From positions 37,903 through 101,902 of the forward strand of contig JAFSBZ010000023.1 of assembly GCA_017437005.1 (NCBI GenBank): a DNA stretch of 64,000 nt. Reading direction: 5' to 3'. Numbering within the stretch: the first letter of the stretch is position 1; each line of letters begins with the position of its first letter. The DNA comes from Clostridia bacterium. GTDB taxonomy: Bacteria; Bacillota; Clostridia; Oscillospirales; Acutalibacteraceae. Positions 19,267 through 50,399 of the stretch are shown one piece after another. Under the pieces are notes generated by a model, which was given only the letters and a program-made list of their open reading frames with translations, did no database searches and was not told where the DNA came from. A program made the position numbers and the translations under genes.

Positions 19267-19440
19267 TTGAATATTATAAAGCGGGCAACACCTCAACTCA
19301 TAATGCTGTTAGTTATTTGTTTAATAGCCGCATTTAGTTATGTTAAAACCGAGATAATCGGTGTTAGCACATCACCAGATAACACAAGAACAGTTATAAT
19401 TGATGCAGGTCACGCGGCATTAAAAAATACTATAGATTAG
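19267..19440 (+). pseudogene. N-acetylmuramoyl-L-alanine amidase, N-terminal fragment
   Basis: A 57-codon fragment starting at TTG 19267 after AAGGAG. It has a signal anchor (residues 11-25, LIMLLVICLIAAFSY) and then TVIIDAGH (residues 42-49), the first strand and first zinc His of Amidase_3. After the His at 19411-19413 the sequence becomes unrelated (AALKNTID, stop). The continuation GGFDGGASAADGT is found 30 kb away at 49837. The gene has therefore been cut by insertion of the element at the CACG core. Confidence 0.92.
19391..19434 (+). other. attL (left junction of the integrative element)
   Basis: Amidase sequence runs to CACG (19411-19414) and is followed by the element arm GGCATTAAAAAATACTATA (19416-19434), the near-exact reverse complement (16 of 19) of the arm at the right junction. 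CACG is the only base-identical core that keeps the amidase reading frame. Confidence 0.85.
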
Positions 19441-19479
19441 TAAAAACAACCTTAAAAAGCAGCGCCAAGTAAATGTTAA

Positions 19480-19516
19480 AAACGGATGAGTTTAGCGCTC
19501 ATCCGTTTGATTTTTT
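19480..19516 (+). terminator. Terminator just inside the left end of the element
   Basis: An 11-bp perfect stem AAACGGATGAG/CTCATCCGTTT (19480-19490 with 19498-19508), 7-nt loop, then GATTTTTT. It stops transcription entering from the amidase promoter, insulating the element. Confidence 0.85.
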
Positions 19517-19581
19517 ACAGTTAATTTGGGAACACAAACCAATATACCAAAATAAAATGTAGCTTTCGCTATATTTTAGCG

Positions 19582-19610
19582 TTGCAAAGATGTTCTTCTT
19601 GTGGTATACT
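19582..19610 (+). promoter_or_regulatory. Promoter of XRE-Fic operon
   Basis: TTGCAA (19582-19587), 17 bp, TATACT (19605-19610). An inverted repeat CGCTA/TAGCG (19567-19581) abuts the -35 element and could bind the XRE protein; the operator call is tentative. Confidence 0.65.
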
Positions 19611-19648
19611 GTGTGTGTAGAATTTTATTCCTTTAATGAGGTGTATTT

Positions 19649-19870
19649 ATGGCTGTTAGTTACAAAAAACTATGGAAGCTTTTAATTGACCACGATATGC
19701 GTAAAAAAGACCTTGCCAAAGTTGCAGAAATCAGCAATTATACCATTACTAAGATGAGTAAGGGTGAAAACGTTACGGTTGAGACTTTAGGCAAAATTTG
19801 TGCCGCCTTAAACTGCGGAGTGGATGATATTATGGAGTTCGTACCCAATGAAGTAAGGGGGGGCAAATAA
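19649..19870 (+). CDS. XRE-family regulator (possible antitoxin/autoregulator)
   Basis: A 73-aa Cro/C1-type helix-turn-helix: [23 protein letters not shown], then [25 protein letters not shown]. Nearly the whole protein is the DNA-binding domain. GAGGTG precedes the ATG. It ends one base before the Fic gene, so the two are coupled. By position it is a candidate repressor or antitoxin for the operon. Confidence 0.85.
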
Positions 19871-19871
19871 T

Positions 19872-20477
19872 ATGGCTCTCGAAAATAAATTAGGCATTAC
19901 CAATTCAGCTGACCTTGCTCGTGAGGAAGAACGTATCAGCAAGAAAAAGGCGCTTGAGCTTTTTGAAAGTGGAATATTAGATAAGTTAGAGGCAGGAAAG
20001 TTTTCTGCTCTTAAAGAAATTCATAAATACCTCTTTGACGAGATTTACGATTTTGCAGGCGAAATCAGAAATGTAAATATTTCAAAAGGCAACTTCCGTT
20101 TTGCACCGTTGATGTACTTGCAGGCGGCTCTTGATAATATTGATAAAATGCCGCAATCTACTTTTGACGAGATAGTAGAAAAGTATGTAGAAATGAACAT
20201 TGCCCACCCCTTCAGAGAGGGTAATGGCCGCAGCACTCGTATTTGGTTAGACTTGATTTTCAAAACCGAACTTCAAAAGGTGGTTGACTGGAGTAGGGTT
20301 GATAAAGAAGATTATTTGTTGGCTATGGAGCGCAGTCCTATTAAGGATATTGAAATTAAGCATATTCTAAAAGCTGCACTTACCGATGATATCAATAGCC
20401 GAGAGGTCTATATGAAAGGCATCGACCACAGCTACTACTATGAAGGCTACACTACCTTCAAAACGGAAGAGTTATAA
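19872..20477 (+). CDS. Fic-domain protein (AMPylase/toxin type)
   Basis: A 201-aa Fic/Doc protein. The active-site motif [12 protein letters not shown] is intact (H-P-F-x-D/E-G-N-G-R-x-x-R), and the flap region [22 protein letters not shown] is present. Such enzymes transfer AMP (or other phosphate groups) from nucleotides onto proteins. An N-terminal helix (about residues 10-35) may be autoinhibitory, but a clear (S/T)xxxE(G/N) motif is not obvious. Downstream of an XRE gene in a mobile element, so a toxin-antitoxin-like role is likely but not proven. Confidence 0.9.
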
Positions 20478-20518: not shown

Positions 20519-21331
20519 ATGAAAAAGGCATCTATTATTTTATTGTCTTTGTTTTTCTTGGTATTACCTTTTATAGCGATTGAAATATTTTTTTTGATTT
20601 TCAGAATTAATATTTTTGATAACCCTGATTTTTGGTATGGATATATGGCGTATTTTGGAACGGTTTCGTTGGCGGCTGTGGCACTTGTTCAAAACTATAA
20701 TGCCAATGTAATCAATGATAGATTACTTAATATGCAAGAAGAACTGCAAGAATTTCAAATTAAAGAAAAGGCTGCCACAGTTGATATTAAACCAATTATT
20801 TTAGATAGTGAACGTGAGTATTTTATTGTGAACGACGATAATTATAATGACGAATTTGATGTGGTTAATCAAAAATATAAGTATTTTTTCTTTATGGAGT
20901 GTTCTAACATTAACAGAAAAAATGCAAAGCTATTCAATGTGGTTTTCGAAGTAAAAAATATTTCAAATAATATTTTGAAGGAAATATATATTGATGACCT
21001 AAAAATTTATGATATTATTACCAATGCTTCTGGTGTATCACAAGAAAAAGAAGAAATTAGAGAATATGTTTATAAAAATACATCTGAATATGCTCAATGT
21101 CTTCTTAGACCAAATGAAAGTATAAAGATTTGCCTAAAGATTTATATGGATGAATATGATATGACCGAGGAGTCTTTTAATATCAATTTCAATTTTTCTA
21201 CAAAGTCAATATATAATGTTATTTTTTCTGAAAATGTAAATTGCTTTAGAAACAATGTTGTCGATACTAAAGATAGAATGTATATGAATATTGAAAGATG
21301 TTATTTTGAGAATATGCCAGAAGCAGTATAA
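20519..21331 (+). CDS. Membrane-anchored hypothetical protein
   Basis: A 270-aa protein of no recognised family. Two hydrophobic helices (about 5-28 and 40-58) are followed by a short coiled coil (residues 66-85, LLNMQEELQEFQIKEK) and an Asn/Asp/Tyr-rich beta-type domain, probably cytoplasmic. It lies 41 bases after fic and 18 before the HipA-like gene, in the same apparent operon. The arrangement of two helices, coiled coil and sensor-like domain recalls membrane proteins of stress or defence modules, but no function can be assigned. Confidence 0.6.
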   Translation: MKKASIILLSLFFLVLPFIAIEIFFLIFRINIFDNPDFWYGYMAYFGTVSLAAVALVQNYNANVINDRLLNMQEELQEFQIKEKAATVDIKPIILDSEREYFIVNDDNYNDEFDVVNQKYKYFFFMECSNINRKNAKLFNVVFEVKNISNNILKEIYIDDLKIYDIITNASGVSQEKEEIREYVYKNTSEYAQCLLRPNESIKICLKIYMDEYDMTEESFNINFNFSTKSIYNVIFSENVNCFRNNVVDTKDRMYMNIERCYFENMPEAV

Positions 21332-21349: not shown

Positions 21350-22384
21350 ATGAAGGATTTTGAGATTTTAAGCCGTGATACAGTTGTAGCTGTTTGGAAA
21401 GATAATGAGCTTAAAGTTTTGAATAATGCTTTGTTGCCGTTATATTTAAAACGAGTTAGCAATGCAAAATCTTGGCTTGAAACACGAGCAATTGACTCGC
21501 ATAGAGCAAACTCCCGTCTGCTTAAAAAGGCTTTAAGACTTGTCGAAAAAGACGATGTTTCAACGGTACTTCACGTTAACGCAGCAACCATTACCGACAC
21601 CTATTGGGTGCGTGAAATTGGCAGCGATTTGAAATATGCAGATATCCGATTTACCAAAGACTATTTCTCCAATTTAGCACTTAGAGGACTTTATTCGAGT
21701 TTTAATTCTGCTGCAAAGCGTAAGGATACCAAAACTCCTGAGCTTACCAATATCGGTAGTTTTGAAAAGTGTTGGAAACTAAAAGACGGAAAATGGTGGA
21801 TTTATAAATCTGCCAACCCAAAAGAACAGTTCTCAGAACTCTTTGTATATGAGTTAGGTAAGGCACTCAAGATGAATATGGCACATTACGAAAAGGGTGA
21901 TAAATGCGTTAAATCGCTTGATTTCACCGATTCAGCCAATGTCATATTTGAACCGGCTTCATCATTTATGGGTGATGAGGAAGATTATATTAAGGTAGTT
22001 GAGAACTTAAAGGAACTTTGTCCTAAAGCAATTCCTGACTATATTAAAATGATTTTCCTTGATACAATAACCGCTAACCCTGATAGACACACAGGAAACT
22101 TCGGTTTAATGCGTGATGTTAAAAGTGGTAAACTTTTAGGACTTGCTCCAAACTTTGATAACAATATGGCTCTTATTGCCCGCGGTTATCCAACAAGCAA
22201 ATCTACAAATGACCTTTTAATCACGCTCTTCAATGAACTAATGGAAAAGTATCCTGCTTATAAGAAATATTTGCCAAAAGTCACAGAGCAGATGGTTAAA
22301 AAGGTTATCAGTAAACTTAATATGAAAGTGAAATCGCAAGCGGTTATAGATTTAGTTATAAGACGTTATGATGCAATAAAATAA
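21350..22384 (+). CDS. HipA-like Ser/Thr kinase
   Basis: A 344-aa protein whose C-terminal half carries the HipA/CtkA kinase motifs: ATP-binding Lys in WIYKSANPKEQFSELFVYELG, the catalytic TANPDRHTGNFGL and the metal-binding LAPNFDNN. It lacks the N-terminal HipA_N domain; instead it has a helical region (about 1-110). No HipB is adjacent, though an XRE gene begins the operon. AAGGAG precedes the ATG. A terminator follows at 22421. Confidence 0.8.
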   Translation: MKDFEILSRDTVVAVWKDNELKVLNNALLPLYLKRVSNAKSWLETRAIDSHRANSRLLKKALRLVEKDDVSTVLHVNAATITDTYWVREIGSDLKYADIRFTKDYFSNLALRGLYSSFNSAAKRKDTKTPELTNIGSFEKCWKLKDGKWWIYKSANPKEQFSELFVYELGKALKMNMAHYEKGDKCVKSLDFTDSANVIFEPASSFMGDEEDYIKVVENLKELCPKAIPDYIKMIFLDTITANPDRHTGNFGLMRDVKSGKLLGLAPNFDNNMALIARGYPTSKSTNDLLITLFNELMEKYPAYKKYLPKVTEQMVKKVISKLNMKVKSQAVIDLVIRRYDAIK

Positions 22385-22948: not shown

Positions 22949-22993
22949 TAACATAGCATTAATAAAATGCACATTTTATAAGGAGTGAAATTT

Positions 22994-25900
22994 ATGAAAT
23001 TAAGCAAAAAACTCTTGGCAGTTATCCTGACTATAAGTGTTTTACTTGCGATGGTAGTGATTCCAGCAAGTGCTTTTACAGGCAGTACTGCAACAATGCC
23101 TACCGACTTCACTGTTATAGAAAACTTTGACGGTGAAAATACACTCGGTTGGGAAGCACATGGCTCAACATTAGAGTTCTCTGATGCATACGGCTATGGC
23201 ACTGAGGGAAAGAGTGCTCATGTTTCTTGGAGCGCATCAGGATGGAATGGATTCAAAACCAAATCAAATGTAACAATTACTCTTGAGAAAACAGGTCTTG
23301 CATTCTGGGCTTACAATGCTGGTAGCGATCTTTCAAGCTTCTGTGTTGTGCTTTTGCAAGGTGACACAAAATATGAAGCAAAGATTACGCTTAAAGCAGG
23401 CGAGGCAATCTATCAGATTCCTTGGACCGATTTTGTAAAGAACGGAGTATCGGTTGATACAACTCAAACCGTAAGACAGATTGACTTTACAAAATCTGCT
23501 GCTTCTGCTGATTACTACATTGACCAGATTGGTTGCTATACCGGTGATGCTGTGCAGAGTGAGTTTGTTGCAAGCACAATAGCTATGCCTGACAATTATA
23601 CGGCAATCGACAACTTTGATAGTGTAAGCGCTCTTAATTGGGAAGCAAATAAATCCACTGCAGAGCTTTCGGCTGACCGTGGTTATGGTAAAACCGGTAA
23701 GAGTATGCACGTTACTTGGAGCGCATCAGGCTGGTGTGGCTTTAAGACAAGCTCAAATCAGAGCATTTCCCTTTCGGGTGACGGTTTAGCTTTCTGGGCT
23801 TATAATGCAGGTAACGAGCTTACAAACTTTGCGATTGTTCTTTTACAGGGCGATGTAAAATATGAAGCAAAAATCACGCTTAAAGCAGGCGAAGGCGTAT
23901 ATCAGATTCCTTGGACTGATTTTGTAAAAAATGATGTATCGGTTGATAAGACAGCGATTGTAAGACAAATTGAGTTCACCAAGTCGGCAGGTTCTGCTAA
24001 CTATTATATAGATGAGCTTTCTTGCTATTCAAATTATATACCAAGCACACTTGAAATGCCTGCAGACTTTACCGTTATTGATGACTTTAACGGTGAAAAC
24101 ACACTCGGCTGGCAGTCAACCAACAAAGCAACATTAAAAATTTCTTCTGAGCGCGGCTATGGTGCAGACGGCAACGGCGCTCATGTTTCTTGGAGTGAAT
24201 CCGGTTGGTCCGGTATGAAGACCGCAAGCGGCAAGAATATTGCCCTTACAGGTGACGGTCTTGCATTTTGGGCTTATAATGCGGGTAACGAGCTTTCAAG
24301 CTTCTGTGTTGTTCTTTTACAAGACAGCGTTAAATATGAGGCTAAGATTACTCTTAAAGCAGGAGAGGCAATCTATAAGATCCCATTTACAGATTTTGTT
24401 AAGAGTGGGGTAGCTGTTGATACTACAAAAACAGTTTCTCAGATTGAATTTACAAAATCTGCAGGCTCAGCCGATTACTTTATCGACCAATTAGGTTGTT
24501 ACGCTGATCCTAAGAAGCCAGCAGTTTCAACAGTTTTGTTTGATACAAGCGTTAAATCATCGTCAAGCGCAATTGCCGGTAGCGGTAAAGGTGGCAATGG
24601 CGGTTTTGACACTGTTAAATGGAAACTATATGATATTGAAAATGACCCACGCTTTACACGCGGCTGTTGGTTTATAGCAGAGGACGTTACTGCAGGTTTA
24701 TTTAATTTTATAAGTGTGACACCAATTGGTACACTTGAGGGTGTTGACATTTCTTCGGCATATTATTTTGGAAATCTTAATTTCTGGATTAAGAGCGAAG
24801 TTGCAGATCGTACTCTTAAAGTTGCACTTAAGGACAAAACAAGCGGCAAATATTCCGATTATGTAGAATTTAAAGTAACCGAGGCAGGTAAATGGCAGCA
24901 GGTAACAATTCCTGTAAAAGAAATTGTCTCTGAAGAGTTACTTAATACTTACCCTGAATTCCTTAAAAATGTTGATGTTGTATCATTTACTGGTAGGGAT
25001 GTAGCGGGTACATTCCAGTTCGGCGAAGAATTTAAGATTGCAGGCGTAAAAGTTTGGGATTCTGATGTTCCTGATTACAGCGAGTATGCTGACCTTGATA
25101 CCGAGCCTACACAGCCTGAGGATGACGGTAGCTATAATCCTGACTCTGAAATTATAGGACAAATTGATTTTACAATGGATTCTTATTCAGGTAACGGCGG
25201 TTTTGGTAAGGTTACAAAAGAAACATTTGATGATTTTGCAACCACACAAAACGGTATAAAGATAGTAGCAGGCGAAGGCATCAAGGATGACAAAATGGCT
25301 ACAAAAGGCTTGTCTGTTTGGTTCGGTGAAGACGGAACTGCAAACACAATTGACTTAACCACACTTGAAGATGGTTACTTTAGTATGTGGGTACGCGGCA
25401 GTCGTGCAGGCATGTCATTCTACTACATTCTTTTCGATGATACTGATAACGATGCAAAGACTTCAATTGTAAAAACCTATACAACAAAAGAAGCAAACAC
25501 ATGGGAAGAGGTTCGTATTCGTATTTGCGACTTTGTTCCTAACGGTGCACTTGATAACGAATATGTATTTAAGATGCAAATTCGTACAGGTTACGGTTCA
25601 TTTAACTGGAGCAAGGCATATCAGGATGAGCAGTGGCTCAATACAGGCGACGTTCTTGAGGTTGCATGTGCAAGAGTTACAGAGGGCAAGCCTATTGATC
25701 CGTTTGCAGTAGTAGATACCGGTGATGACGGTAACGGTGAGGATGACGGTAGCACCGATACAGGTAATGATACCAACACCAACACCGGTACTGGTTCCAC
25801 TAATACAGGCTCTAACGACACAAACACAGGTTCGGGAACAAATACTGGTACAGGTTCAACCGATGGAACAACCAATGATAATACAGCAGGCGGAACATCA

Positions 25901-26005
25901 CCTGTAACAGGCGAATCCGCAATGGTGCTTGTTATGCTTTTGACTTTTGCTTGCATTAACGGTGTTATAGCCGCTTTTGCAAAAAGCAGAATTAAAGCAA
26001 AATAA
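22994..26005 (+). CDS. Surface-anchored carbohydrate-binding repeat protein
   Basis: A 1003-aa exported protein. Signal peptide (residues about 1-28, cleavage near ASAF). Three tandem 150-160-aa beta-sandwich-like repeats begin at nt 23096, 23585 and 24056, each with LAFWAYNAG, YEAKITLKAGE and a closing YYIDQ-type strand, like CBM11-type carbohydrate-binding modules. Two further, different beta domains follow (about residues 510-690 and 715-900). A Thr/Asn/Gly linker leads to SPVTGE, a hydrophobic helix and KSRIKAK, a sortase-like cell-wall signal. It probably captures glucan at the cell wall. AAGGAG fits ATG 22994; a GTG at 22985 is less likely. Confidence 0.8.
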   Translation: MKLSKKLLAVILTISVLLAMVVIPASAFTGSTATMPTDFTVIENFDGENTLGWEAHGSTLEFSDAYGYGTEGKSAHVSWSASGWNGFKTKSNVTITLEKTGLAFWAYNAGSDLSSFCVVLLQGDTKYEAKITLKAGEAIYQIPWTDFVKNGVSVDTTQTVRQIDFTKSAASADYYIDQIGCYTGDAVQSEFVASTIAMPDNYTAIDNFDSVSALNWEANKSTAELSADRGYGKTGKSMHVTWSASGWCGFKTSSNQSISLSGDGLAFWAYNAGNELTNFAIVLLQGDVKYEAKITLKAGEGVYQIPWTDFVKNDVSVDKTAIVRQIEFTKSAGSANYYIDELSCYSNYIPSTLEMPADFTVIDDFNGENTLGWQSTNKATLKISSERGYGADGNGAHVSWSESGWSGMKTASGKNIALTGDGLAFWAYNAGNELSSFCVVLLQDSVKYEAKITLKAGEAIYKIPFTDFVKSGVAVDTTKTVSQIEFTKSAGSADYFIDQLGCYADPKKPAVSTVLFDTSVKSSSSAIAGSGKGGNGGFDTVKWKLYDIENDPRFTRGCWFIAEDVTAGLFNFISVTPIGTLEGVDISSAYYFGNLNFWIKSEVADRTLKVALKDKTSGKYSDYVEFKVTEAGKWQQVTIPVKEIVSEELLNTYPEFLKNVDVVSFTGRDVAGTFQFGEEFKIAGVKVWDSDVPDYSEYADLDTEPTQPEDDGSYNPDSEIIGQIDFTMDSYSGNGGFGKVTKETFDDFATTQNGIKIVAGEGIKDDKMATKGLSVWFGEDGTANTIDLTTLEDGYFSMWVRGSRAGMSFYYILFDDTDNDAKTSIVKTYTTKEANTWEEVRIRICDFVPNGALDNEYVFKMQIRTGYGSFNWSKAYQDEQWLNTGDVLEVACARVTEGKPIDPFAVVDTGDDGNGEDDGSTDTGNDTNTNTGTGSTNTGSNDTNTGSGTNTGTGSTDGTTNDNTAGGTSPVTGESAMVLVMLLTFACINGVIAAFAKSRIKAK

Positions 26006-26167: not shown

Positions 26168-27550
26168 ATGTTAAACACAAACAATTTAAGCTACTGGACA
26201 TTGCAAAAGTTTCCTTACATACTTACCCCTATAAGTAACTTTATGTTTTTTACATTAAGCAAAGGGCAAAGCACAACAATCTCAACAAACAATCATACAT
26301 TTTGTTATGTTAAAAGCGGCACAGTTAAAGCAACTTTTGAAAACTATGAAACTGTAAATAAAAACGAACAAATAAATCTGACAACAGGTATGTTTGTGCA
26401 GTGGAGCGGTCAAGGTTTTCTTGAATTTACTGCAGTAGAAGATAACACGCGTATATTAGTGATTTCATTTAAATTGCTTCGACCAAATCAACCGGATGAT
26501 TATGACTCTGCCGACGTAGTTAACTATACCATACCTGTATTGATGCAAAGGCTTACTATAGAAATGCCACATACTCTAACGCCCGAAGTGGCATCGGTTG
26601 AGCGGAGATTGCTTGAAAATATGTGTACCGAAGCGGGACAGCGCTCGGTAGGATATTTTAATAAGCTTCAGCTATTGCTTAGTCAGCTTGTTGTTGAAAT
26701 AGTGCGCAATCATCCCAAGATGCCGCGATATATTGATGCGGTTGCAATAACCAGTAATACAGACAACGACCGACCATTAGACAAAGATAGGGAAGTATAC
26801 ATAAAAGATATCGAAATTTGGTGTAACAATCCTGCCGAGGATGGATCGTTTATTTTACGTACAATGCGCGCCGATCGATATTTTGTATCAAATAACGGAG
26901 ATACAAATGAAAAAATAAATTATGAGCTTATTACAGAACAAGACGGCTCGAAAATTGGCAAGCTTTATACCACTGAAACAAAACTTTGCTACAAGGTTTT
27001 ATTTTGGGCGGATAGCGGAATTAAGCCGTTTGACATTGAGCTGTATACTAAAAAGTGGATATATGTTCGCACAAAGATAAAAAGCAATATGACAGGTAAT
27101 GTTGGGCTTGCGATTTATACAACTAAAGGTCATCACTGGTTTGGAAGTCCTGTTATGATTGAGCACCCTGATATTTGGCAAGATGTTTCGGTGCCTGTAA
27201 TGTTTGTACAGGGCAGTAATGATGCTTCACCAATTGTTGCAAACGCTATGAAGTATATTCATCAAAACTATACGCAGAAAATAAGTCTAAAATCTGTCGC
27301 AGAGGCAATTTATACTAATCCAAATTATCTTTCTACTGTATTCAGTCGGGAAAAGGGAATGACTTTTTCTGCATATGTTAAAAATTATCGGTTAAGCGTT
27401 GCTCAAAAAATGCTTATTGAAACCGACCAGAGTATAGAAAAAATTGCTCTTTCGGTAGGGTTTTATGATATACAGCATTTTTCTAAAATATTTAAAAAAG
27501 AATTTGGTGTCTCACCAATTAGATTCCGAAACGCAAACAAGATAAAATAA
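26168..27550 (+). CDS. AraC-family transcriptional regulator of the glucan locus
   Basis: A 460-aa regulator. Residues about 20-120 form a cupin-like sensor (FFTLSKGQSTTISTNNHTFCYV), followed by a helical dimer region. A middle beta-rich domain (about 195-345) resembles a carbohydrate-binding module, unusual for AraC proteins. The C-terminal 100 residues carry two HTH motifs: SLKSVAEAIYTNPNYLSTVF and SIEKIALSVGFYDIQHFSKI, ending in the signature FKKEFGVSPIRFR. No membrane helix, so it likely senses imported oligosaccharide. It sits between the two genes or operons with matching operator sites. Confidence 0.9.
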   Translation: MLNTNNLSYWTLQKFPYILTPISNFMFFTLSKGQSTTISTNNHTFCYVKSGTVKATFENYETVNKNEQINLTTGMFVQWSGQGFLEFTAVEDNTRILVISFKLLRPNQPDDYDSADVVNYTIPVLMQRLTIEMPHTLTPEVASVERRLLENMCTEAGQRSVGYFNKLQLLLSQLVVEIVRNHPKMPRYIDAVAITSNTDNDRPLDKDREVYIKDIEIWCNNPAEDGSFILRTMRADRYFVSNNGDTNEKINYELITEQDGSKIGKLYTTETKLCYKVLFWADSGIKPFDIELYTKKWIYVRTKIKSNMTGNVGLAIYTTKGHHWFGSPVMIEHPDIWQDVSVPVMFVQGSNDASPIVANAMKYIHQNYTQKISLKSVAEAIYTNPNYLSTVFSREKGMTFSAYVKNYRLSVAQKMLIETDQSIEKIALSVGFYDIQHFSKIFKKEFGVSPIRFRNANKIK

Positions 27551-27642: not shown

Positions 27643-29079
27643 ATGAAAACTACAATTAAAAGACTTATACTAATTGCGTTATGTGTGATGATGGTGTTTT
27701 CGTTGTGTTGTTGCAAAAAAACACCGAGTAACGATAGCGTAAATTCAACCGCAAGTAATCCTGTCATAAATATTGATGATGACACGGACATTAGTTCTGA
27801 AGGTATTTTTTCCGATGATACAACAAGTGAGGATACCGAAAGTGCTGTTAATAGCGATACTGATAAAGATAATACCACAAGCAGTAACAATAGTGTTATC
27901 GGTCCTGTAACAAGCAGTAATCCAAATGACATTGCAAGCGGTAACAACAGCGACGGTAACACTGTTATTGAAAACACGGGTGATGATACGCCTACCACCA
28001 GCACAACAACAAATACAGAAAACGGGCATACTATAACCGCTACATACGAGTGGCATCCGGGTCTTCCTGACACTAACGTTTCATATCCTATCACTGTTTT
28101 AGTAGATAATGCTCCTGTAAATGCAAGTCAGATTACTTTTACATCAAGTGTCAATGGTGTCAGCTTTGCAGGTAATGTTGTTACCATTCCTTACAGTGTT
28201 CGCTCTGCGGGTAATACAATAACGGTTACAGCAAAACATTCGTCCGGTGTTAAATGTGATATTAATATTCCTTGCTTTAAATACACACAAACCTTTAATG
28301 ATGATTTTAACGGCACAACACTTGACCGTACTAAATGGAGTGAGCATTCATCGCTTACTACAACACCACCTTCCGATGCTGCAAGCTATCAGGTTATAGA
28401 CCGTGCTAAATCTGTAAAGGATTGCTTTGAAGTAAAAGACGGAAAGCTTAATATGCTTATCAAGGATCAGCCATGCTATGATACTACAAATAAAATCAAA
28501 TATCTTTACAGTGAGTGCTGTCTTGATACACGCGGTAATTTTATGCAAACCTACGGACTTTTTCAAGCAAATATTGCCTGTGCAAAATTTGGTGGCATAA
28601 ATACTGCATTCTGGTTGCTGCCTAACGGAAGTTATTCAACACAGTACACAAACTTTATGACCGAGGATCCTAACTGGGGTCTTGCCGAGATTGATATTCT
28701 TGAAGCAAGTGTTGCTTTTGGCAGTAAAGATCGAAAAACCTTCTGTATTTCTGAGCATTTTTACAATTATAACGACAACTACGACCATAAACAACAATCA
28801 AAATATTATAAAGTAAACGATACAATAACCAATTTTCATACTTATTCTTGCGTGTGGACGGCTGATGCCCTTTATTATTATGTTGATAGCGATCTTATCC
28901 GTAGCACTACAGGTTTACAGGCGAAAAGCGCCGGAGGAAAGTCGGTTTCACGTGCATATATGATAATTGACGTAGCACTTTATCTTGATAATGCATGGGT
29001 TGGCAAGCGAGATTTCACTAAATCAGATCTGCCTATTGCCGGTACAGTTGATTGGGTAAGAGCGTATAAGTTCAAGTGA
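27643..29079 (+). CDS. GH16 endo-beta-1,3-glucanase (lipoprotein)
   Basis: A 478-aa lipoprotein: N-terminal hydrophobic segment ending FSLCCCKKT (lipobox cysteines near 22-24), a long Ser/Asp/Thr-rich linker to about residue 130, a small beta domain (about 135-215), then a GH16 domain. The catalytic motif EIDILE places the nucleophile E349, D351 and acid/base E354; the six-residue form is typical of laminarinases. It would cut beta-1,3 (or mixed) glucan outside the cell. First gene of the operon, with GGGAGG before the ATG. Confidence 0.92.
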   Translation: MKTTIKRLILIALCVMMVFSLCCCKKTPSNDSVNSTASNPVINIDDDTDISSEGIFSDDTTSEDTESAVNSDTDKDNTTSSNNSVIGPVTSSNPNDIASGNNSDGNTVIENTGDDTPTTSTTTNTENGHTITATYEWHPGLPDTNVSYPITVLVDNAPVNASQITFTSSVNGVSFAGNVVTIPYSVRSAGNTITVTAKHSSGVKCDINIPCFKYTQTFNDDFNGTTLDRTKWSEHSSLTTTPPSDAASYQVIDRAKSVKDCFEVKDGKLNMLIKDQPCYDTTNKIKYLYSECCLDTRGNFMQTYGLFQANIACAKFGGINTAFWLLPNGSYSTQYTNFMTEDPNWGLAEIDILEASVAFGSKDRKTFCISEHFYNYNDNYDHKQQSKYYKVNDTITNFHTYSCVWTADALYYYVDSDLIRSTTGLQAKSAGGKSVSRAYMIIDVALYLDNAWVGKRDFTKSDLPIAGTVDWVRAYKFK

Positions 29080-29094
29080 TTTGAGGGGTTTTAA

Positions 29095-40401: not shown

Positions 40402-40419
40402 GGAAAGGAAGAGCGGTTA

Positions 40420-42948: not shown

Positions 42949-42967
42949 CTTTAGAAAGGTAACCATT

Positions 42968-44704
42968 ATGTATTTTAATTTATTTTTGCGCCCACATAGC
43001 GGCGAACTCAAAATGCAGATGTATGAGCTGCAAAGAAAAGTGGGCCATGATTTAGGTTTTAAATCTACCATATTCTTGGGAATGGATTTTTTAAAAGATC
43101 CAGAGATGATAGAAAAATGTAAATATGATCGTGATACATACGGTGACGAGATTGCCGTTTGGCTCACTTCGGACGGTAAAGCGGGTGGCGGTCAGGTTTG
43201 GCTTATTCGTAAAGAGGATAAGAAACGTGTTGTAAAAAATGCTATAGATGCTTACATCGACGCATTTGGTCATGCTCCTAAATCTGTTGGTAACTATGTT
43301 ATGGACGCCGATCTAATTGAAGTTGTAAAGGATTATTGCCCCGAGGTAGAAGCATGCGTTGCAGGCTGCTTTGAAGAAGGTGTAAAAGTATTCCACGGTT
43401 GTAATAATTCGTGGTATCTCTTCTCTGAGGGTATGTCGTGGGGACCGTGGTATCCGTCTAAAACACATTCAATCAGACCTGCAAAGAATGAAGATGATTG
43501 GTCAGGTGTAGTAGCCGTTCCTCATCTTAGTCGTGATTTGGTTTTGGGATATGAGAATCGCAATGACTTTTTTGCAAGTCATCCTGCAAACGCACAGCGC
43601 GGTCTTGCAAACGATGTTTATAATCACGACTATGATTTTAAATTATTTGACCAATATCGTATTCAACAAGATTTTAACGATGGTATGTCATACTATCAGA
43701 TGCACGTATCACCCGGTTGGCTTAGTCGAAACTTCAACATTATTGACCCTGATGAAATCACACAAAAATTATATCTTGAAACACTGGAGTATATTGCGGA
43801 GCTTCGTGATAAAGGCGAAATAGAGGCTGTTACCTTTAGCGAGTTTGCTTCAGAGTATAAAAAGTCAACGCCTATTGGTAAAGCTACCGTTGGCTTTGCA
43901 AAGGATATACTTATGGGTTCGGGCAAGCAGTATTATTGGATTTTTGATCCAAGTTATCGCGTGCTTATTGATACTTTCCAAGGTGGTTCTATTGGAGATT
44001 TACGTGCATATGCAGGTGAGTATGCTGCTGTTACAGGTCCTGATGCAAAGAATGGTAGATATCACTATAATACATATCCTTACATTATACAGTCGCAGTA
44101 CCGTACTGGGTATAAGACTCATTCCCAAGACGGTTCACGTACCACACTTATTATGACACATGGTAATGAAAATCTTGATATGTGTGATTATAATACAACG
44201 GTAGAATCTATTAGCCGCACAAAAACTAATTGTCAACTTATATTAAAACCAGTTGATGTTGAATTTTCAGATGGCTTTACGGTGAAATTACAAACGATAT
44301 ACGATTTTGAAAATGGCGGTGACATACTTATTACGCGTAGAGTAATTGAAATGAGTGATGACTCTGATGATTTTAAAGTTCAGGAATATGTTAAAGCGTC
44401 ATATGGTTTCACTGAGTATGCCGAAGATATGAAAGATATAACGCTTTATTGCGATGGCGAAAAGGTAATAGACTATACATATCGTAATACCGAGTTTAAA
44501 AAGCAGGGTGGCGGTTATGTGTCGGCTGTGATACCTGATATAACAACCGAAGTAAAGCTTTGCCCCGAATCACAAGCGGATACAGTTAGCGTAAAAGAGG
44601 GTAACTTGTTTGGTCCGTTCTTTACTCTAAAGGTAGACTACAATATAACAAATGATACAAAGGAGGTCAAAACATGGCTGCGATTAAGCAAAACACAGGC
44701 GTAA
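42968..44704 (+). CDS. Putative barrel-fold carbohydrate enzyme, unknown family
   Basis: A 578-aa protein without signal peptide, so intracellular. Residues 1-310 start YFNLFLRPHSGELKMQMYEL and look like a beta/alpha barrel resembling polysaccharide-deacetylase or GH57-type folds (WLTSDGKAGGGQVWLIRK; YVMDADLIEVVKDYCPEVEA; VSPGWLSRNF). Residues about 380-578 are a beta-sandwich (RTTLIMTHGNENLDMC; GGDILITRRVIEMSD). AAAGG precedes the ATG, 19 bases after the previous gene. It likely acts on glucan oligomers in the cytoplasm, but no family can be named. Confidence 0.6.
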   Translation: MYFNLFLRPHSGELKMQMYELQRKVGHDLGFKSTIFLGMDFLKDPEMIEKCKYDRDTYGDEIAVWLTSDGKAGGGQVWLIRKEDKKRVVKNAIDAYIDAFGHAPKSVGNYVMDADLIEVVKDYCPEVEACVAGCFEEGVKVFHGCNNSWYLFSEGMSWGPWYPSKTHSIRPAKNEDDWSGVVAVPHLSRDLVLGYENRNDFFASHPANAQRGLANDVYNHDYDFKLFDQYRIQQDFNDGMSYYQMHVSPGWLSRNFNIIDPDEITQKLYLETLEYIAELRDKGEIEAVTFSEFASEYKKSTPIGKATVGFAKDILMGSGKQYYWIFDPSYRVLIDTFQGGSIGDLRAYAGEYAAVTGPDAKNGRYHYNTYPYIIQSQYRTGYKTHSQDGSRTTLIMTHGNENLDMCDYNTTVESISRTKTNCQLILKPVDVEFSDGFTVKLQTIYDFENGGDILITRRVIEMSDDSDDFKVQEYVKASYGFTEYAEDMKDITLYCDGEKVIDYTYRNTEFKKQGGGYVSAVIPDITTEVKLCPESQADTVSVKEGNLFGPFFTLKVDYNITNDTKEVKTWLRLSKTQA

Positions 44705-44977: not shown

Positions 44978-47140
44978 ATGAAAATCACAAACAAAGACTA
45001 TTACGAACAAAATGTTGAAAAACTACTTGCGAAAATGTCTTTAACGGAAAAAATAGGACAACTTAATCAGCTTGAAACACCCAAACTTGACAATTTAGAG
45101 GAATTTAAAAATAAAGTAAGAGAGGGTAAGGTGGGTTCTATTTTAATGTCTGTAGGTGCAACTGCAGGTAACACTGAGCAGGGAACAATAGATGTTGATT
45201 TTTATAACGAACTTCAACGTATTGCCGTTGAAGAGAGTCCTTGCGGTATTCCTATGATATTTGGTCGCGATGTAATACATGGTCATAGAACGGTATTTCC
45301 AATTCCACTTGCAATGGCGGCATCTTTTAATCCAGAACTTATAGAAAAAGCATATAGTTTTATTGCGAAAGAGGCTTCTAACGAAAGTGTGCACTGGACA
45401 TTTACTCCTATGATAGACTTGTGTCATGACCCTAGGTGGGGCAGAATTATCGAAGGACCGGGGGAGGATCCATATGTAGGCGCTAAATTTGCAGAAGCGG
45501 TAGTGAAGGGTGTTCAAGGAGATGATGTATCTCGAAAGGATAAACTGTTAGCTTGTGCAAAACACTATGTTGGCTATGGTGCTAGCGAGGGTGGTAGAGA
45601 TTATCATCGCACTGAAATTTCTGATTATAGTCTTTTTAACAACTATTTACCTGCTTTTCGTTCTGCAATTAAAGCGGGTGTAAAAACAGTTATGTCAGCA
45701 TTTAACGATATTAATGGACAGCCTATTACATCAAGTAAATATTATTTAACCGATATTTTAAGAAATCATCTTGGATTTGAAGGTTTTGTCGTTTCTGATT
45801 ATGATGCTGTGTGTCAGCTTGCACGTCAGGGCGTTGCTGAAAGCGAAGCGGATTGTTGCAAAATGGCTTTGAACGCAGGTTTAGATATGGATATGCACGA
45901 CAGTTGTTATATGGACAATTTGATAAAACTTGTAGAGGATGGCATTGTTGATATAGGTGCGGTTGATGATGCGATAAGGCATATATTAAGAATAAAATTT
46001 CAAAAAGGGCTTTTTGATAATCCTTATTGTCAACATACTACAATTGAACGTAGCGAACATCTTAAAACAGCATATGAAATGGCTTGCGAATCTATGGTTT
46101 TACTTAAAAATGACAACCAAACCTTGCCTATTGAAAAATCGCAAAAAATTGCAGTTTTGGGACCTTTTGTGCATGAGCGAAGGTCGTTGCTTGGCAGTTG
46201 GACTATAGACGGTAAAGCAGAGGAAACACAAACCTTTTTTGAGGAATTAAGTAGCGCAGTAACCGGTGAGTTAAGAACTTCGCCTTTTGGTGAATTCGGT
46301 TGGAACACAACGGCTTCTACTATAGAGTGGGCGGATGTTATTGTGCTGGCCCTGGGCGAAGAATGGTCTAACACGGGTGAATCAAGATGCGTTTCAGACA
46401 TAACTATATCAGCAGCACAAAAAGAGCTTATAAAAAAAGCAAAGGCTTCGGGTAAAAAAGTGATAGGTGTTTTCTTTTGTGGGCGGCCTATTGCTATGCA
46501 GGGGATTGCCGAGGATTTGGACGCTGTTCTTTATGCTTGGCATTGTGGCAGCAAGACGGCAGCGGCTGCTTGCGACATATTATTTGGCGACATCGTACCT
46601 AGTGGTAAATTGCCCGTGACAATACCACGACTTGCTACACATATACCACTTTATTATAACGTTACTTCAAGCGGTCGACCGGTTAACAGTTATTATGGTG
46701 AACACACAGGCGCCTGTTACATTGACAGTGTAGCCGCACCATATTATCCTTTTGGATATGGTTTATCATATACAGAATTTGAATACAGTAAACCGAGTCT
46801 TTCGAGCAAGCAGATTTCTATAACTGATTTAAAAAACGGACAAAAAGTCAAAATATCTGTTAATGTCAGAAATGTGGGTAACTACGACGCTAAAGAAACT
46901 GTACAGTTATATATTCACGATCCAGTCGCTACAATGATGCGACCTTTAAGGGAATTGAAAGCGTTTAAAAAAGTTTTTATTCCGTCGGGTCAAAGCAAAA
47001 CGGTGGAGTTTGAAATAGGTTTTGAAGATTTAGGTTATTATTTAAGTAATGGCAAATATATTGTGGAAAAAGGTGTAATAGAAATTCTTGTTGGCTCAGA
47101 CTGCTTGACAAATAATGAGATGTTATTTAATATTTTATAA
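44978..47140 (+). CDS. GH3 beta-glucosidase
   Basis: A 720-aa glycoside hydrolase family 3 protein without signal peptide. N-terminal TIM barrel (GRDVIHGHRTVFPIPLAMAA; WGRIIEGPGEDPYV; CAKHYVGYGASEGGRDYH), nucleophile Asp in GFVVSDYDAV, then the alpha/beta sandwich domain (VALGEEWSNTGE-type segment) and a C-terminal fibronectin III-like domain (VRNVGNYDAKETVQLYI). It would release glucose from short beta-glucans in the cytoplasm, finishing the work of the GH16 enzymes. Confidence 0.95.
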   Translation: MKITNKDYYEQNVEKLLAKMSLTEKIGQLNQLETPKLDNLEEFKNKVREGKVGSILMSVGATAGNTEQGTIDVDFYNELQRIAVEESPCGIPMIFGRDVIHGHRTVFPIPLAMAASFNPELIEKAYSFIAKEASNESVHWTFTPMIDLCHDPRWGRIIEGPGEDPYVGAKFAEAVVKGVQGDDVSRKDKLLACAKHYVGYGASEGGRDYHRTEISDYSLFNNYLPAFRSAIKAGVKTVMSAFNDINGQPITSSKYYLTDILRNHLGFEGFVVSDYDAVCQLARQGVAESEADCCKMALNAGLDMDMHDSCYMDNLIKLVEDGIVDIGAVDDAIRHILRIKFQKGLFDNPYCQHTTIERSEHLKTAYEMACESMVLLKNDNQTLPIEKSQKIAVLGPFVHERRSLLGSWTIDGKAEETQTFFEELSSAVTGELRTSPFGEFGWNTTASTIEWADVIVLALGEEWSNTGESRCVSDITISAAQKELIKKAKASGKKVIGVFFCGRPIAMQGIAEDLDAVLYAWHCGSKTAAAACDILFGDIVPSGKLPVTIPRLATHIPLYYNVTSSGRPVNSYYGEHTGACYIDSVAAPYYPFGYGLSYTEFEYSKPSLSSKQISITDLKNGQKVKISVNVRNVGNYDAKETVQLYIHDPVATMMRPLRELKAFKKVFIPSGQSKTVEFEIGFEDLGYYLSNGKYIVEKGVIEILVGSDCLTNNEMLFNIL

Positions 47141-47565: not shown

Positions 47566-47623
47566 TTTTCTGAGAAAAAATATAAAGGGAAAATCACACG
47601 GTTGTTTGACCGAACAAATAATT

Positions 47624-47667
47624 AAGCCGTAAAACAGTCTTAATTGATTGTTTTACGGCTTTTTTAT
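47624..47667 (+). terminator. Strong terminator upstream of the integrase operon
   Basis: A 13-bp perfect stem AAGCCGTAAAACA/TGTTTTACGGCTT (47624-47636 with 47649-47661), then TTTTT. A small hairpin CGGT/ACCG precedes it. It provides a second stop after the small RNA. Confidence 0.85.
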
Positions 47668-48031
47668 GTTCTTGCCATATGTCAGTTTAGTAAAAAAATT
47701 TATATGAAGTACATAACAAAAAGATTTTAAAAAACTGACATATAGCAAATAGCTCTAAAACCCTGTGTTTATGCGGGTTTGGGAATTTATATTAACAGAA
47801 AATTTACAAAAAACTAACACATCTACGTTGGGGGGTGCAGTTTTACGAAACAAGGGTTTTGTTTTGCGGCGATTGTCAAATCGCCGCGGTGCAGAAAAAG
47901 TTGCTTTGATTTTTGTTGGAAATTTGTGTGAGAGGTAGTTGTTTTTGATTTGGAGGTGGTACAGAAAAGGACATATATTTTCGTAGTTTAGAATAAAAAT
48001 ATTATGACTATATTTTAAGGAGGAAATGAAA
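47668..48031. other. Noncoding stretch before integrase operon
   Basis: No credible gene on either strand. It contains the second GCGGCGA hairpin, a G-run (GGGGGG near 47830) and an AAGGAGG just before 48032. A weak TATTAT lies near 48000 but no clear -35. Confidence 0.6.
47866..47887 (+). repeat. GCGGCGA hairpin, copy 2
   Basis: GCGGCGATT/AATCGCCGC, 9-bp stem with GTCA loop, then GGTGCAGAAAAA. Relative to copy 1 a C-G pair has become T-A while pairing is kept. Confidence 0.65.
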
Positions 48032-48235
48032 ATGACCGATAGAAAAACAGAGTATAATGTCATTAATATTTTCTCCGGCAGTAACAATATAGAAATGAAA
48101 GCAAAGGTTAATGAAATAATTAGAAATCTTTGCGTTACCGAACTTGAAATTATAGCCGGTTTGGAATATAATGAAGATACAACATTGCTTGGCGATGCTC
48201 TGAATTCAAAAAGAGGGGGCATCGAACAATGTTAA
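48032..48235 (+). CDS. Small protein upstream of the serine integrase
   Basis: A 67-aa protein, no recognised family: a short beta-like start and two helices (KAKVNEIIRNLCVTELEIIAGL). AAGGAGG lies eight bases before ATG 48032. It overlaps the integrase start by 7 bases, so the two are made together. Possible roles are integrase regulation or a directionality factor, both inferred only from position. Confidence 0.7.
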   Translation: MTDRKTEYNVINIFSGSNNIEMKAKVNEIIRNLCVTELEIIAGLEYNEDTTLLGDALNSKRGGIEQC

Positions 48236-49815
48236 CTGAAATTGCGGATATTTATGTCAGGCTCTCGGATCAGGACAGGGATAAAAAGGATAAGTCCGAT
48301 GAAAGCGAAAGTATCCAAAACCAAAAAACAATGCTTATTAAATATTGCATTGAAAGAGGGTGGCAGATTAACGATATTTATTGCGATGAAGATTACAGCG
48401 GTGCCGATAGCAAACGACCTGCTTGGAATCAAGTGCTCAAAGACTGCGAAGAGGGCAAATGCTCGATAGTGGTTTGTAAAACTCAGTCAAGATTTTCGCG
48501 TGATATGGAAATGATCGAAAAGTATATCCACGGTAAATTTCTTGAATGGGGAATACGCTTTGTTGGTGTGGTTGATAATGCCGATACCAACGTTAAGGGC
48601 AACAAAAAAGCAAGGCAGATAAATGGTCTTGTTAATGAATGGTATCTTGAAGACCTGTCAGAAAACATTAAATCCACATTAAGTGCAAAAAGAAAAAATG
48701 GTGAGTTTGTGGGCTCATTTGCGCCGTATGGCTATTTGGTTGACCCCGAAAACAAAAATCATCTGATAATTGATGAAATTGCCGCACCTGTGGTGCAAAG
48801 AATTTTTGATATGTACATAATGGGCAGTGGATATATTGCTATTGCAAAAGCGCTTAATGAGGATAAAATACCACCGCCCTGCATAAGAAAAAAGCAGTTA
48901 GGCTCTAAATACTATAACGGTAATTATGAGAAAAGCCATTCGCCGACAACTGTTTGGACCGACTCGGCTGTATACGCTATTCTTCGCCGATATACCTACA
49001 CAGGTGCGCTTGTTCAAGGGCGACAGGAGATTGTTAATTATAAGACCAAAAAACGCCGCACAAAGCCACAGGAGCAGTGGGATATAATAGAAGATATGCA
49101 CGAACCGATTATATCAAAGGAAACCTTTTATAAGGCTCATAATATAAGACTGCAACGTGGCAAGGGGCAAAAGATACCGAGTGGTAGCTGTTACTCGCTG
49201 GCTAAAAAAGTTTTTTGCGGTGAATGCGGTAACACAATGTGGAAGATGAGCTACAAGCTTCGTGACGGACGGTACAATTATTTATGTTGCAGAACTCGAA
49301 AATCTTCAAATGGAGTTTGCGACAATGAACACAGTATGCGTCTTGACGAATTAGAGCAGATAGTTCTCCAAGAGATTAACAAGCTTTTGGACAACTATTA
49401 TGACGAAAATGCAATCGGAAAAATTAAAGCGCCTAAAAAAGACAACAAAGTTCAAAAGTCTATGGTCACAGAAATCAAAGAACTTGAGGATAAGGTTAAG
49501 CGCAATGATTCCCGAATGGCTCAAATGTATACTGACAAGTTGGATGGCATAATCACAGCGGACGAGTTTTCAAACTATCGTGAAAGGTACAAGCAGGAAA
49601 CCATAGAATATCAAAATCGCATAAATATTTTAACTGCACAGCTTAATGAAATAAGTGGTAGCAATAATCCTACAGACACAAAATTTATACTCGATAAATA
49701 TAAGCATATAGATGTGCTGACCTTTGAGATTGCCAATCAGTTTGTAAACAAAATTTTTATCGGCAAATTAGAGGAAAACGGCAGCAGAAATATCAAAATT
49801 GAGTGGAAAATATAG
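48229..49815 (+). CDS. Large serine recombinase (integrase of the element)
   Basis: A 528-aa site-specific recombinase. The resolvase domain starts IADIYVRLSDQDRD with the catalytic Ser at 13, followed by ESIQNQ, DEDYSGAD and KTQSRFSRDMEMIE. The Recombinase domain is at about 165-300 (FAPYGYLVD), the zinc ribbon at about 325-375 (CGECGNTMWK ... CDNEH), then a coiled coil (about 400-480) and a C-terminal DUF4368-like tail. Its stop TAG lies inside the attR arm. It cuts both strands at attL/attR cores and would integrate the circle into the amidase gene; excision normally needs a helper protein. Confidence 0.96.
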   Translation: MLTEIADIYVRLSDQDRDKKDKSDESESIQNQKTMLIKYCIERGWQINDIYCDEDYSGADSKRPAWNQVLKDCEEGKCSIVVCKTQSRFSRDMEMIEKYIHGKFLEWGIRFVGVVDNADTNVKGNKKARQINGLVNEWYLEDLSENIKSTLSAKRKNGEFVGSFAPYGYLVDPENKNHLIIDEIAAPVVQRIFDMYIMGSGYIAIAKALNEDKIPPPCIRKKQLGSKYYNGNYEKSHSPTTVWTDSAVYAILRRYTYTGALVQGRQEIVNYKTKKRRTKPQEQWDIIEDMHEPIISKETFYKAHNIRLQRGKGQKIPSGSCYSLAKKVFCGECGNTMWKMSYKLRDGRYNYLCCRTRKSSNGVCDNEHSMRLDELEQIVLQEINKLLDNYYDENAIGKIKAPKKDNKVQKSMVTEIKELEDKVKRNDSRMAQMYTDKLDGIITADEFSNYRERYKQETIEYQNRINILTAQLNEISGSNNPTDTKFILDKYKHIDVLTFEIANQFVNKIFIGKLEENGSRNIKIEWKI

Positions 49816-50399
49816 TATTAGCTAATGCCTCACACGGTGGGTTTGATGGTGGAGCATCGGCGGCTGATGGAACGGTAGAAAAAGATATTAATTTGTTTAT
49901 TGCACAAAAACTTTGCTCAATTCTTCGCTTTAACGGATATAACGTAATAATGACACGAGATACCGATACCGGTACCGAAGATGATGAATCGGCTTCAATT
50001 GCTAAACGTAAAAAAAGTGACCTTTCAAATCGTTTGCAGATTATGAAACAACATCCCGAAGCAATATTTGTAAGTGTTCATCTTAACAAATTTACAACAT
50101 CGGCGGCAAATGGAGCGCAGGTTTTTTATACAAAAAATTATAAGCAAGCGTATGATCTTGCAAATTCGATACAATCAAGTATTAAAATGCTTATTCAACC
50201 CGAAAATACACGTGTAGTAAAGCAGGGAACAAGCAGTACATATTTACTCAAGAATGCGTCAGTACCTGCAATAATTGTTGAATGTGGATTTTTGAGTAAT
50301 AAACAAGAACTTGAAAAGCTTAAAAATGATGATTATCAATCCCAAATAGCATTTGCTATTGTTGTGGGTATAATGGATTTTTACGAATTAAGGAGTTAA
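49803..50399 (+). pseudogene. N-acetylmuramoyl-L-alanine amidase, C-terminal part
   Basis: An open frame of 198 codons from GTG 49803. From CACG (49833) onward it is the catalytic part of Amidase_3: HGGFDGGASAADGTVEKDIN with zinc ligands, IFVSVHLNKF with the second His, and VECGFLS with the catalytic Glu. The signal anchor and first strand are missing and replaced by ENIVLANAS from the element arm. It has no good ribosome binding site at GTG. The true N-terminus is at 19267. Without export it cannot reach peptidoglycan, so it is probably non-functional. Confidence 0.9.
49811..49856 (+). other. attR (right junction of the integrative element)
   Basis: Element arm TATAGTATTAGCTAATGCC (49811-49829), TCA, core CACG (49833-49836), then amidase sequence GTGGGTTTGATGG. 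The alternative core TCAC is also shared but would put the amidase out of frame. Confidence 0.85.

What the first reader, a model, noticed from the sequence alone, without database searches (positions are those of the whole stretch)
19411..49836. A 30.4-kb integrative element splits an amidase gene, with both halves visible
The N-terminal 49 codons of an Amidase_3 gene (ending TVIIDAGH) are at 19267-19413 and the rest (GGFDGG...) is at 49837-50399, before radA. Both junctions share CACG, and a serine recombinase gene ends at the right junction. Joining the flanks restores the frame with the DAGHGGFDGG motif. The element was therefore inserted precisely by site-specific recombination into a cell-wall hydrolase gene.
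Basis: partly seen in the sequence, partly recalled or inferred. Interest (0 to 1): 0.9.

Follow-up and report, generated by a model that had tools for sequence, protein, structure and literature searches.

The report
Mobile island splitting spore gene cwlD
A 30-kb mobile DNA island carrying sugar-digestion genes has inserted itself at one exact point in what is probably a spore-germination gene of a gut bacterium, and related bacteria carry different islands at the same point, which suggests the islands may be cut out again when the cell makes a spore.

Summary
An Amidase_3 gene is split at DAGH|GG, and the joined flanks give an open frame of the length seen in relatives. The gene is most probably cwlD, the spore-cortex amidase: TIGR02883 is by far the best model, but scores below its cut-off. 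The 30,422-bp insert ends in a large serine recombinase preceded by a small conserved ORF, a candidate directionality factor. It carries a GH16/GH3/ABC-transporter cluster, Fic and a HipA-like kinase; no conjugation or phage structural genes appeared among the 19 element proteins scanned.

Eleven of 70 genomes of the genus, this one included, carry an element end at the same codon. The four elements with both ends on one contig differ in cargo and run from 7.7 to 45.2 kb. Twenty-three loci are uninterrupted. In 6 of 6 elements with both ends, the rebuilt attP is a dyad centred on one CA dinucleotide. Recombinase and host distances are unrelated, so the family moves horizontally.

Most of the genus keeps spore genes, and three members carry sigK-splitting elements. 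My reading is a cwlD-intervening element, excised in the mother cell. Excision was not shown, and no attP circle was found. Three papers on such elements do not mention cwlD.

The parts
19172..19205 (+). possible mother-cell sigma-E-like promoter upstream of the split cwlD-like gene
   Evidence: Score 10.6 with a matrix made from 20 spoIVA upstreams, the 4th best site in the window on both strands; sites of 7.9-13.8 upstream of cwlD in 4 intact relatives; the training sites themselves score 17.7-29.1, and no shuffle control was made for these. A sigma-A-like TTGCAA-N17-TATAAT starts at 19219 (naming it sigma-A is recalled).
19267..19413 (+). 5' part of the cwlD-like amidase gene (49 codons, ends DAGH)
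   Evidence: matches intact relatives L016-L019 at 51-63% identity.
19411..19440 (+). attL: core CA at 19411-19412, then the element left end with AATACTATA (19426-19434)
19649..19870 (+). XRE/HTH_26 regulator
   Evidence: PF13443, E 5.3e-20.
19872..20477 (+). Fic protein adenylyltransferase
   Evidence: NF046029 over cut-off (316.7 against 230 bits).
20519..21331 (+). protein of unknown family
   Evidence: No Pfam match.
21350..22384 (+). HipA-like kinase, shared by the four elements with both ends on one contig
   Evidence: PF07804 28.7 bits, just below its cut-off of 30.5; found at E <= 1e-60 in 7 of 70 genomes, all 7 with an element left end.
22985..26005 (+). carbohydrate-binding surface protein (CBM30-like)
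   Evidence: PF21582.
26168..27550 (+). AraC-family regulator
   Evidence: PF00165, PF12833.
27643..30210 (+). two GH16 glycoside hydrolases (27643-29079, 29095-30210)
   Evidence: PF00722.
30238..38279 (+). two sugar ABC-transporter sets: solute-binding proteins (30238-31785, 33726-36479) and permeases (31803-32768, 32778-33713, 36491-37402, 37353-38279)
   Evidence: PF00528, PF01547 (31803-32768 below the Pfam cut-off). 30238-31785 has no Pfam match and an NCBIfam MalE match below cut-off; 37353-38279 was not scanned and is named from sequence and position only.
38284..44704 (+). NHL/Yip1 protein, DUF5696 protein and an unassigned 578-aa protein
44978..47140 (+). GH3 beta-glucosidase
   Evidence: PF00933, PF01915.
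47969..48006 (+). promoter-like block conserved upstream of the small ORF in 6 elements
   Evidence: The clearest conserved upstream block in the alignment of 6 elements; not recognised by the sigma-E matrix.
48026..48235 (+). 69-aa ORF, candidate recombination directionality factor
   Evidence: Conserved in 6 elements, 12 invariant columns; overlaps the recombinase start.
48229..49815 (+). large serine recombinase, 528 aa
   Evidence: PF00239, PF07508, PF13408; best solved relative YokA of SPbeta.
49811..49836 (+). attR: TATAGTATT arm and core CA at 49833-49834
49837..50399 (+). 3' part of the cwlD-like gene; readable from GTG 49803 but without its N-terminal hydrophobic segment
   Evidence: PF01520, E 2.3e-44; TIGR02883 202.2 bits.
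50401..51783 (+). radA, host flank

Best explanation
This is a cwlD-intervening element: a mobile, cargo-carrying chromosomal island whose large serine recombinase joins its attP to an attB spanning the invariant DAGHGG codons of the sporulation amidase gene cwlD, at a CA core. SHOWN by sequence: the precise split, the dyad attP, repeated insertions at the same codon, recombinases that do not track their hosts, and a conserved recombinase plus small ORF. INFERRED: the gene is CwlD in function; the small ORF is the directionality factor; during sporulation it and the recombinase excise the island in the terminal mother cell and restore cwlD there; the forespore keeps the integrated copy, so the host still makes spores that can germinate. 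The cargo (beta-glucan use in this copy, from the GH16 and GH3 families) and the HipA/Fic genes are passengers or maintenance genes.
For: Split and frame. Same break elsewhere. Ten of 12 recombinase relatives sit beside the 3' half and radA (7 of these 10 are the same contigs as G003, G007, G017, G047, G058, G061, G063), and an 11th (L012, 45% identity) abuts a 5' half that also ends DAGHGG. attP dyad on CA in 6 of 6. Recombinase against radA identity r = -0.24 over 55 pairs of 11 loci, 4 of them with recombinase fragments of 132-356 aa, e.g. G058-L007 97% against 65% (pS). Host spore genes: SpoIVA in 55 of 61 genomes, 52 over cut-off, own included, control only B. subtilis. Five of the 6 genomes without SpoIVA also lack a strong amidase match (P 0.0004, but they are 57-91% complete). 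sigK-splitting elements in G001, G051, G060. Possible sigma-E-like site on cwlD. Best solved relative is SPbeta YokA. In the window, G058, G007 and G047 both halves stay open; dN/dS of the 3' half is 0.06-0.12 in 4 of 5 pairs with the window, the fifth being saturated. No close second copy in the 85%-complete own genome. Precedents for excision: PMC5025042, PMC4191935, PMC5595907 (abstract and passages).
Against: Excision was never seen: no attP in 200 family genomes (3 of them from the genus, G000 the sole known carrier) or in IMG/VR. The promoter-like block scores no better than shuffles with the sigma-E matrix; it shares CATAAAC with dpaA upstreams, but the spacing differs by two and the window's copy reads AATA. 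The CwlD assignment is below the TIGR02883 cut-off even for two intact relatives (207.1 and 203.2 against 221.55). PdaA is below cut-off in 9 of 9 and dpaA in 70 of 70. The sigma-K model matches 70 of 70 genomes but also 11 of 14 controls; only 17 of 70 pass its cut-off, the window's not. Eleven of 61 genomes have no strong amidase match, among them G009 (94% complete) and G034 (91%), so the gene is not universal in the genus. G036 has an element left end but no SpoIVA match. G035 keeps an element end, its recombinase is mostly deleted, and no intact cwlD was found in that 90%-complete genome. Open frames may only mean recent insertion. The sigma-A-like site suggests cwlD is not solely a sporulation gene here.
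Confidence: 0.57

Rival explanations
1. An ordinary site-specific genomic island that uses cwlD only as a conserved landing site. Integration permanently inactivates cwlD, and carriers sporulate badly or not at all until the island is lost.
For: Recombinases do not track their hosts, so insertions may be recent and decay not yet visible. G035 has a mostly deleted recombinase and no intact cwlD found. G036 has an element end and no SpoIVA match. No sigma-E match upstream of the recombinase.
Against: Eleven of 70 genomes carry an end although SpoIVA is found in 55 of 61. The small ORF is conserved beside the recombinase. The one genome with an element left end but no recombinase in the 37 kb fetched, G004, has an intact cwlD 10.6 kb downstream.
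Confidence: 0.33
2. The truncated 3' half stays functional from the GTG at 49803, whose element-encoded residues replace the first beta-strand.
For: The ORF overlaps the recombinase stop, and many right ends read VLAN..HGG in frame.
Against: It lacks the N-terminal hydrophobic segment and the DAG of the motif. In G007 a stop lies 4 codons before HGG. The shared residues are explained by the attP dyad.
Confidence: 0.05
3. Assembly artefact joining unrelated contigs.
For: The named contigs are all from metagenome-assembled genomes; G004 has a puzzling duplicated 5' end.
Against: Matching ends in 11 genomes, and a dyad that only the true ends are likely to form.
Confidence: 0.02

Closest known systems
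gin element in gerE of Bacillus cereus ATCC10987 (PMC5595907, abstract and passages)
   Same: 28.6-kb insert splitting a sporulation gene, without phage genes, with a serine recombinase and a small factor (GirX) needed for excision.
   Different: gin has three serine recombinases and its sporulation-specific excision was demonstrated; here one serine recombinase, target cwlD, sugar-use cargo, many copies across a genus, excision not shown.
skin element of Clostridium difficile sigK (PMC5025042, abstract and passages)
   Same: Large serine recombinase immediately upstream of the 3' half of the target; small RDF of 72 aa.
   Different: [quoted passage not shown] here the small ORF overlaps the recombinase gene and its promoter class is unresolved.
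SPbeta in spsM of Bacillus subtilis (PMC4191935, abstract and passages; YokA structure 9dxh)
   Same: YokA is the best sequence match among solved structures (52 bits). That YokA is the SprA of these papers is recalled.
   Different: SPbeta is a prophage; no phage structural genes were seen here.
XisF of the cyanobacterial fdxN element, and Ccr recombinases of SCC cassettes (NCBIfam hits)
   Same: CcrB (105.3 bits), XisF (99.9) and CcrC (99.0) are the best NCBIfam hits. That fdxN is excised in development, and that SCC cassettes are islands without conjugation genes in one conserved gene, is recalled.
   Different: All lie far below their cut-offs (900, 375, 900), and the target here is an internal catalytic motif of a probable spore gene.

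Membership tests
sporulation gene-intervening element (skin, SPbeta/spsM, gin, yin) | precisely splits a gene | tested here: met
sporulation gene-intervening element (skin, SPbeta/spsM, gin, yin) | the split gene is a sporulation gene | tested here: inconclusive
   Best model is CwlD but below the curated cut-off; possible sigma-E-like site; co-absence with SpoIVA in incomplete genomes.
sporulation gene-intervening element (skin, SPbeta/spsM, gin, yin) | encodes its own serine recombinase | tested here: met
sporulation gene-intervening element (skin, SPbeta/spsM, gin, yin) | encodes a directionality factor | tested here: inconclusive
   Conserved small ORF; no meaningful match among solved structures.
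sporulation gene-intervening element (skin, SPbeta/spsM, gin, yin) | excision in the mother cell during sporulation | not testable with these tools
   Needs cultures. Searches for an assembled circle were negative.
sporulation gene-intervening element (skin, SPbeta/spsM, gin, yin) | recombinase or RDF under mother-cell sigma control | tested here: inconclusive
   Conserved CATA-type block, no sigma-E matrix match, partial likeness to dpaA upstreams.
CwlD (TIGR02883) | score over curated cut-off | tested here: not met
   207.1 and 203.2 for two intact relatives against 221.55; next best model 78 and 71 bits.
integrative conjugative element or prophage | conjugation or phage structural genes | tested here: not met
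   None in the Pfam results for 19 element proteins of the window, 10 of 15 listed ORFs of G058, 4 of 6 of G047 and 6 of 26 of G007. The unscanned ORFs were not tested.

The most novel reading that the evidence does not exclude
These islands use the spore programme for transfer as well as for survival: excision is confined to the mother cell, whose lysis releases circular island DNA, while the forespore inherits the integrated copy. That would explain how islands without visible conjugation or phage structural genes spread between distant hosts with recombinases 97% identical, into the same codon of cwlD.
Probability: 0.1. Interest if true: 0.9.

Novelty: new variant of a known kind. Interest (0 to 1): 0.68.

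Why it matters
If right, cwlD joins sigK, spsM, spoVFB, spoVR, gerE and yabG (targets named in PMC4191935 and PMC10747680, passages) as a spore gene interrupted by a removable element, and the element is a horizontally moving cargo island rather than a decayed prophage. It would link carbohydrate-use islands of gut Clostridia to the spore cycle, and it offers a serine recombinase with a DAGHGG target conserved across host species.

Tried and rejected
Sigma-E control of the recombinase: a matrix from 20 spoIVA upstreams, picked by a consensus with fixed spacing that I set myself, did not recognise the six recombinase upstreams, so I do not claim it. Vertical inheritance of an old insertion, which would make the low dN/dS decisive: rejected because even in the closest pair within the group of seven similar recombinases the recombinases are less diverged than radA (L004-L007 pS 0.28 against 0.52). 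G049 looked interrupted but is a contig break. yabG as a source of sigma-K promoters: no match in 70 of 70. dpaA upstreams gave a candidate sigma-K motif, but it lies inside a hairpin-like repeat, so it is weak evidence. Circular attP in IMG/VR and 200 family genomes: none. The candidate RDF against solved structures: one hit at E 1.2. The HipA-like kinase against solved structures: none at E 0.001. Rfam: no match in the window.
Full report
The break. The window holds an Amidase_3 gene in two parts: 49 codons at 19267-19413 ending TVIIDAGH, and the rest from 49833 to 50399, followed by radA. The junctions share CACG, and the joined flanks give one open frame. The insert is 30,422 bp. Its G+C (0.368) is close to that of the flanks (0.379, 0.383), so composition does not mark it.

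The target gene. The 3' half alone scores 202.2 bits with TIGR02883 (spore CwlD). Two intact relatives score 207.1 and 203.2 against a cut-off of 221.55, with the next model at 78 and 71 bits. So it is CwlD-like and probably CwlD, but formally below the curated threshold. The other matches in the own genome are distant: 29% identity in a 711-aa frame, and a weak partial match; that genome is 85% complete. Upstream of the 5' half lies a possible sigma-E-like site (10.6; three other places in the window score higher), with sites of 7.9-13.8 upstream of cwlD in four intact relatives, against 17.7-29.1 for the spoIVA sites of the training set. A sigma-A-like site lies nearer the start. In C. difficile and B. 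subtilis CwlD is needed to make muramic-delta-lactam and for cortex breakdown in germination (PMC6021603, passages; PMC10116595, listing).

Relatives. The genus as held has 70 genomes. A protein search over 61 of them gave some match in 59 at E <= 0.001, but only 50 have a strong one (E below 1e-30). The 11 without include G009 (94% complete) and G034 (91%). Among the loci fetched, 23 are uninterrupted; radA was found beside 20 of them. The right-end pattern occurs in 8 of 70, G007 was found by its peptides, and the left-end pattern occurs in 9 of 70; the reversed-pattern controls found nothing. Setting G004 aside, 11 genomes carry an end: G000, G003, G007, G017, G035, G036, G047, G053, G058, G061, G063. 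In six both halves were read (G000, G007, G047, G058 on one contig, G061 and G063 on two). G003, G017 and G035 show only the right end; G036 and G053 only the left, G053 by the pattern alone at a contig end. G004 is special: an element left end with the HipA-like gene, no recombinase in the 37 kb fetched, and an intact cwlD 10.6 kb downstream. L004, L007 and L011, whose contigs did not turn up among the 70 genomes, show the same right end.

The recombinase and its site. Twelve relatives were found in genome contigs (20 stretches matched a pattern). Ten lie beside the 3' half and radA, in L008 with the HipA-like gene in between. One, L012, with 45% identity, abuts a 5' half ending DAGHGG in the other orientation. 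One, L013, lies elsewhere. Rebuilding attP from the ends of six elements gives a dyad centred on the CA of CACG, with 15-18 of 25 positions paired; these are ranks 1-6 of 408 centres, mean 6.3. G047 reads CACG at the left and CATG at the right, which independently places the crossover at CA. The best solved relative is YokA of SPbeta, 52 bits; 485 phage records match, all under 60% identity, and IMG/VR gave one relative at 41%.

Movement. Over 55 pairs of 11 loci, recombinase identity does not follow radA identity (r = -0.24; 4 of the 11 recombinases are fragments of 132-356 aa). Seven recombinases differ at pS 0.25-0.42 while 20 of their 21 host pairs differ at radA pS 0.68-0.81; the exception, L004-L007, is 0.52. 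The elements have therefore moved between hosts. This weakens any argument from purifying selection: dN/dS of the 3' half is 0.06-0.12 in 4 of 5 pairs with the window (the fifth is saturated), near the 0.045-0.085 of six pairs of intact genes, with dS high throughout, but insertions may be recent.

Contents. The four elements with both ends on one contig are 7.7, 19.4, 30.4 and 45.2 kb. This one carries GH16, GH3, CBM30-like, AraC and ABC-transporter genes. Relatives of its first GH16 at 59-65% identity lie in G026, G041 and G061, in G041 and G061 on another contig than cwlD and in G026 likewise. G007 carries GH42, GH38 and GH106-like genes (6 of 26 ORFs scanned), G047 oxidoreductases (4 of 6), G058 Hsp70, AAA, a caspase-like peptidase and a tyrosine-integrase-like gene (10 of 15). 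All four share the recombinase and the HipA-like kinase; the small ORF was aligned from six elements. The kinase occurs at E <= 1e-60 in 7 of 70 genomes, all 7 with an element left end (P about 3e-8). I saw no conjugation or phage structural genes among the proteins scanned.

Sporulation. SpoIVA is found in 55 of 61 genomes including the window's, 52 over cut-off, and in only one of 14 control genomes, B. subtilis. Five of the 6 genomes without it also lack a strong amidase match (P 0.0004; 4 of 5 and P 0.0013 without the carriers G036 and G053), but these genomes are 57-91% complete, so incompleteness is a confounder. The sigma-K model matches 70 of 70 genomes, which says little since it also matches 11 of 14 controls; 17 of 70 pass the cut-off and the window's is just below. 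The dpaA model matches 67 of 70 and 14 of 14 controls, none of the 70 over cut-off. sigK is split in G001, G051 and G060, with a 572-640-aa protein beside the 3' half that resembles the window recombinase at 21-24% identity and starts like a serine recombinase; I did not scan it for domains. G062 shows only a 5' part near a contig end. So elements in spore genes are already at home in this genus.

Regulation. Upstream of the small ORF one block is conserved in six elements. It is not recognised by the spoIVA-derived sigma-E matrix (scores -1.6 to 3.1, reached by 32 to 214 of 300 shuffles). Its CATAAAC resembles dpaA upstreams, with different spacing. The sigma factor stays open.

Against the reading. 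No excised form was found. G035 retains an element end with a recombinase reduced to its two tips and no intact cwlD found in a 90%-complete genome. G036 has an end but no SpoIVA match. CwlD and PdaA models are below cut-off.

Literature. The papers on intervening elements that I looked into with this term (PMC5595907, PMC4191935, PMC10747680; passages of the main text) contain no mention of cwlD. The library searches (2 of 2 papers listed; 11 of 11; 30 of 215; 1 of 1; 12 of 52; 20 of 38) listed no paper whose title or abstract start reports an element in cwlD. Subscription journals are mostly not held. spoVR and spoVFB as targets are from PMC4191935, yabG from PMC10747680.

Noticed in passing
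L144, L146, L148 (G051, G001, G060): sigK is split in these genus members, with a serine-recombinase-like protein of 572-640 aa beside the 3' half: skin-like elements in the same genus.
   Followed up: partly
L125 (G004:C15), reverse-complement coordinates 3346-4304 and 12268-14924: Duplicated cwlD 5' end (95.9% over 171 nt) and duplicated upstream region (88.6% over 682 nt) around an element left end without recombinase, followed by an intact cwlD; possible repair of the locus or chimeric assembly.
   Followed up: partly
L012:4739-6519: A 45%-identical recombinase abuts a 5' amidase half ending DAGHGG in the opposite orientation, in a Clostridia genome from a sample named Lapin.
   Followed up: partly
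L064:560-1060 (G035): Recombinase gene internally deleted to about 14 N-terminal and 21 C-terminal codons while the small ORF and the 3' half remain.
   Followed up: partly
window 21350-22384: HipA-like kinase below the Pfam cut-off and without a relative among solved structures at E 0.001, tied to these elements; its role is unknown.
   Followed up: partly
L050 and L049 (G058 element): Cargo with a caspase-like peptidase, Hsp70 and AAA proteins (the AAA IetA-like by PADLOC); could be a defence cassette.
   Followed up: no
L095-L118: Many dpaA upstreams share CATAAACTGTA within a hairpin-like repeat in the genus.
   Followed up: no
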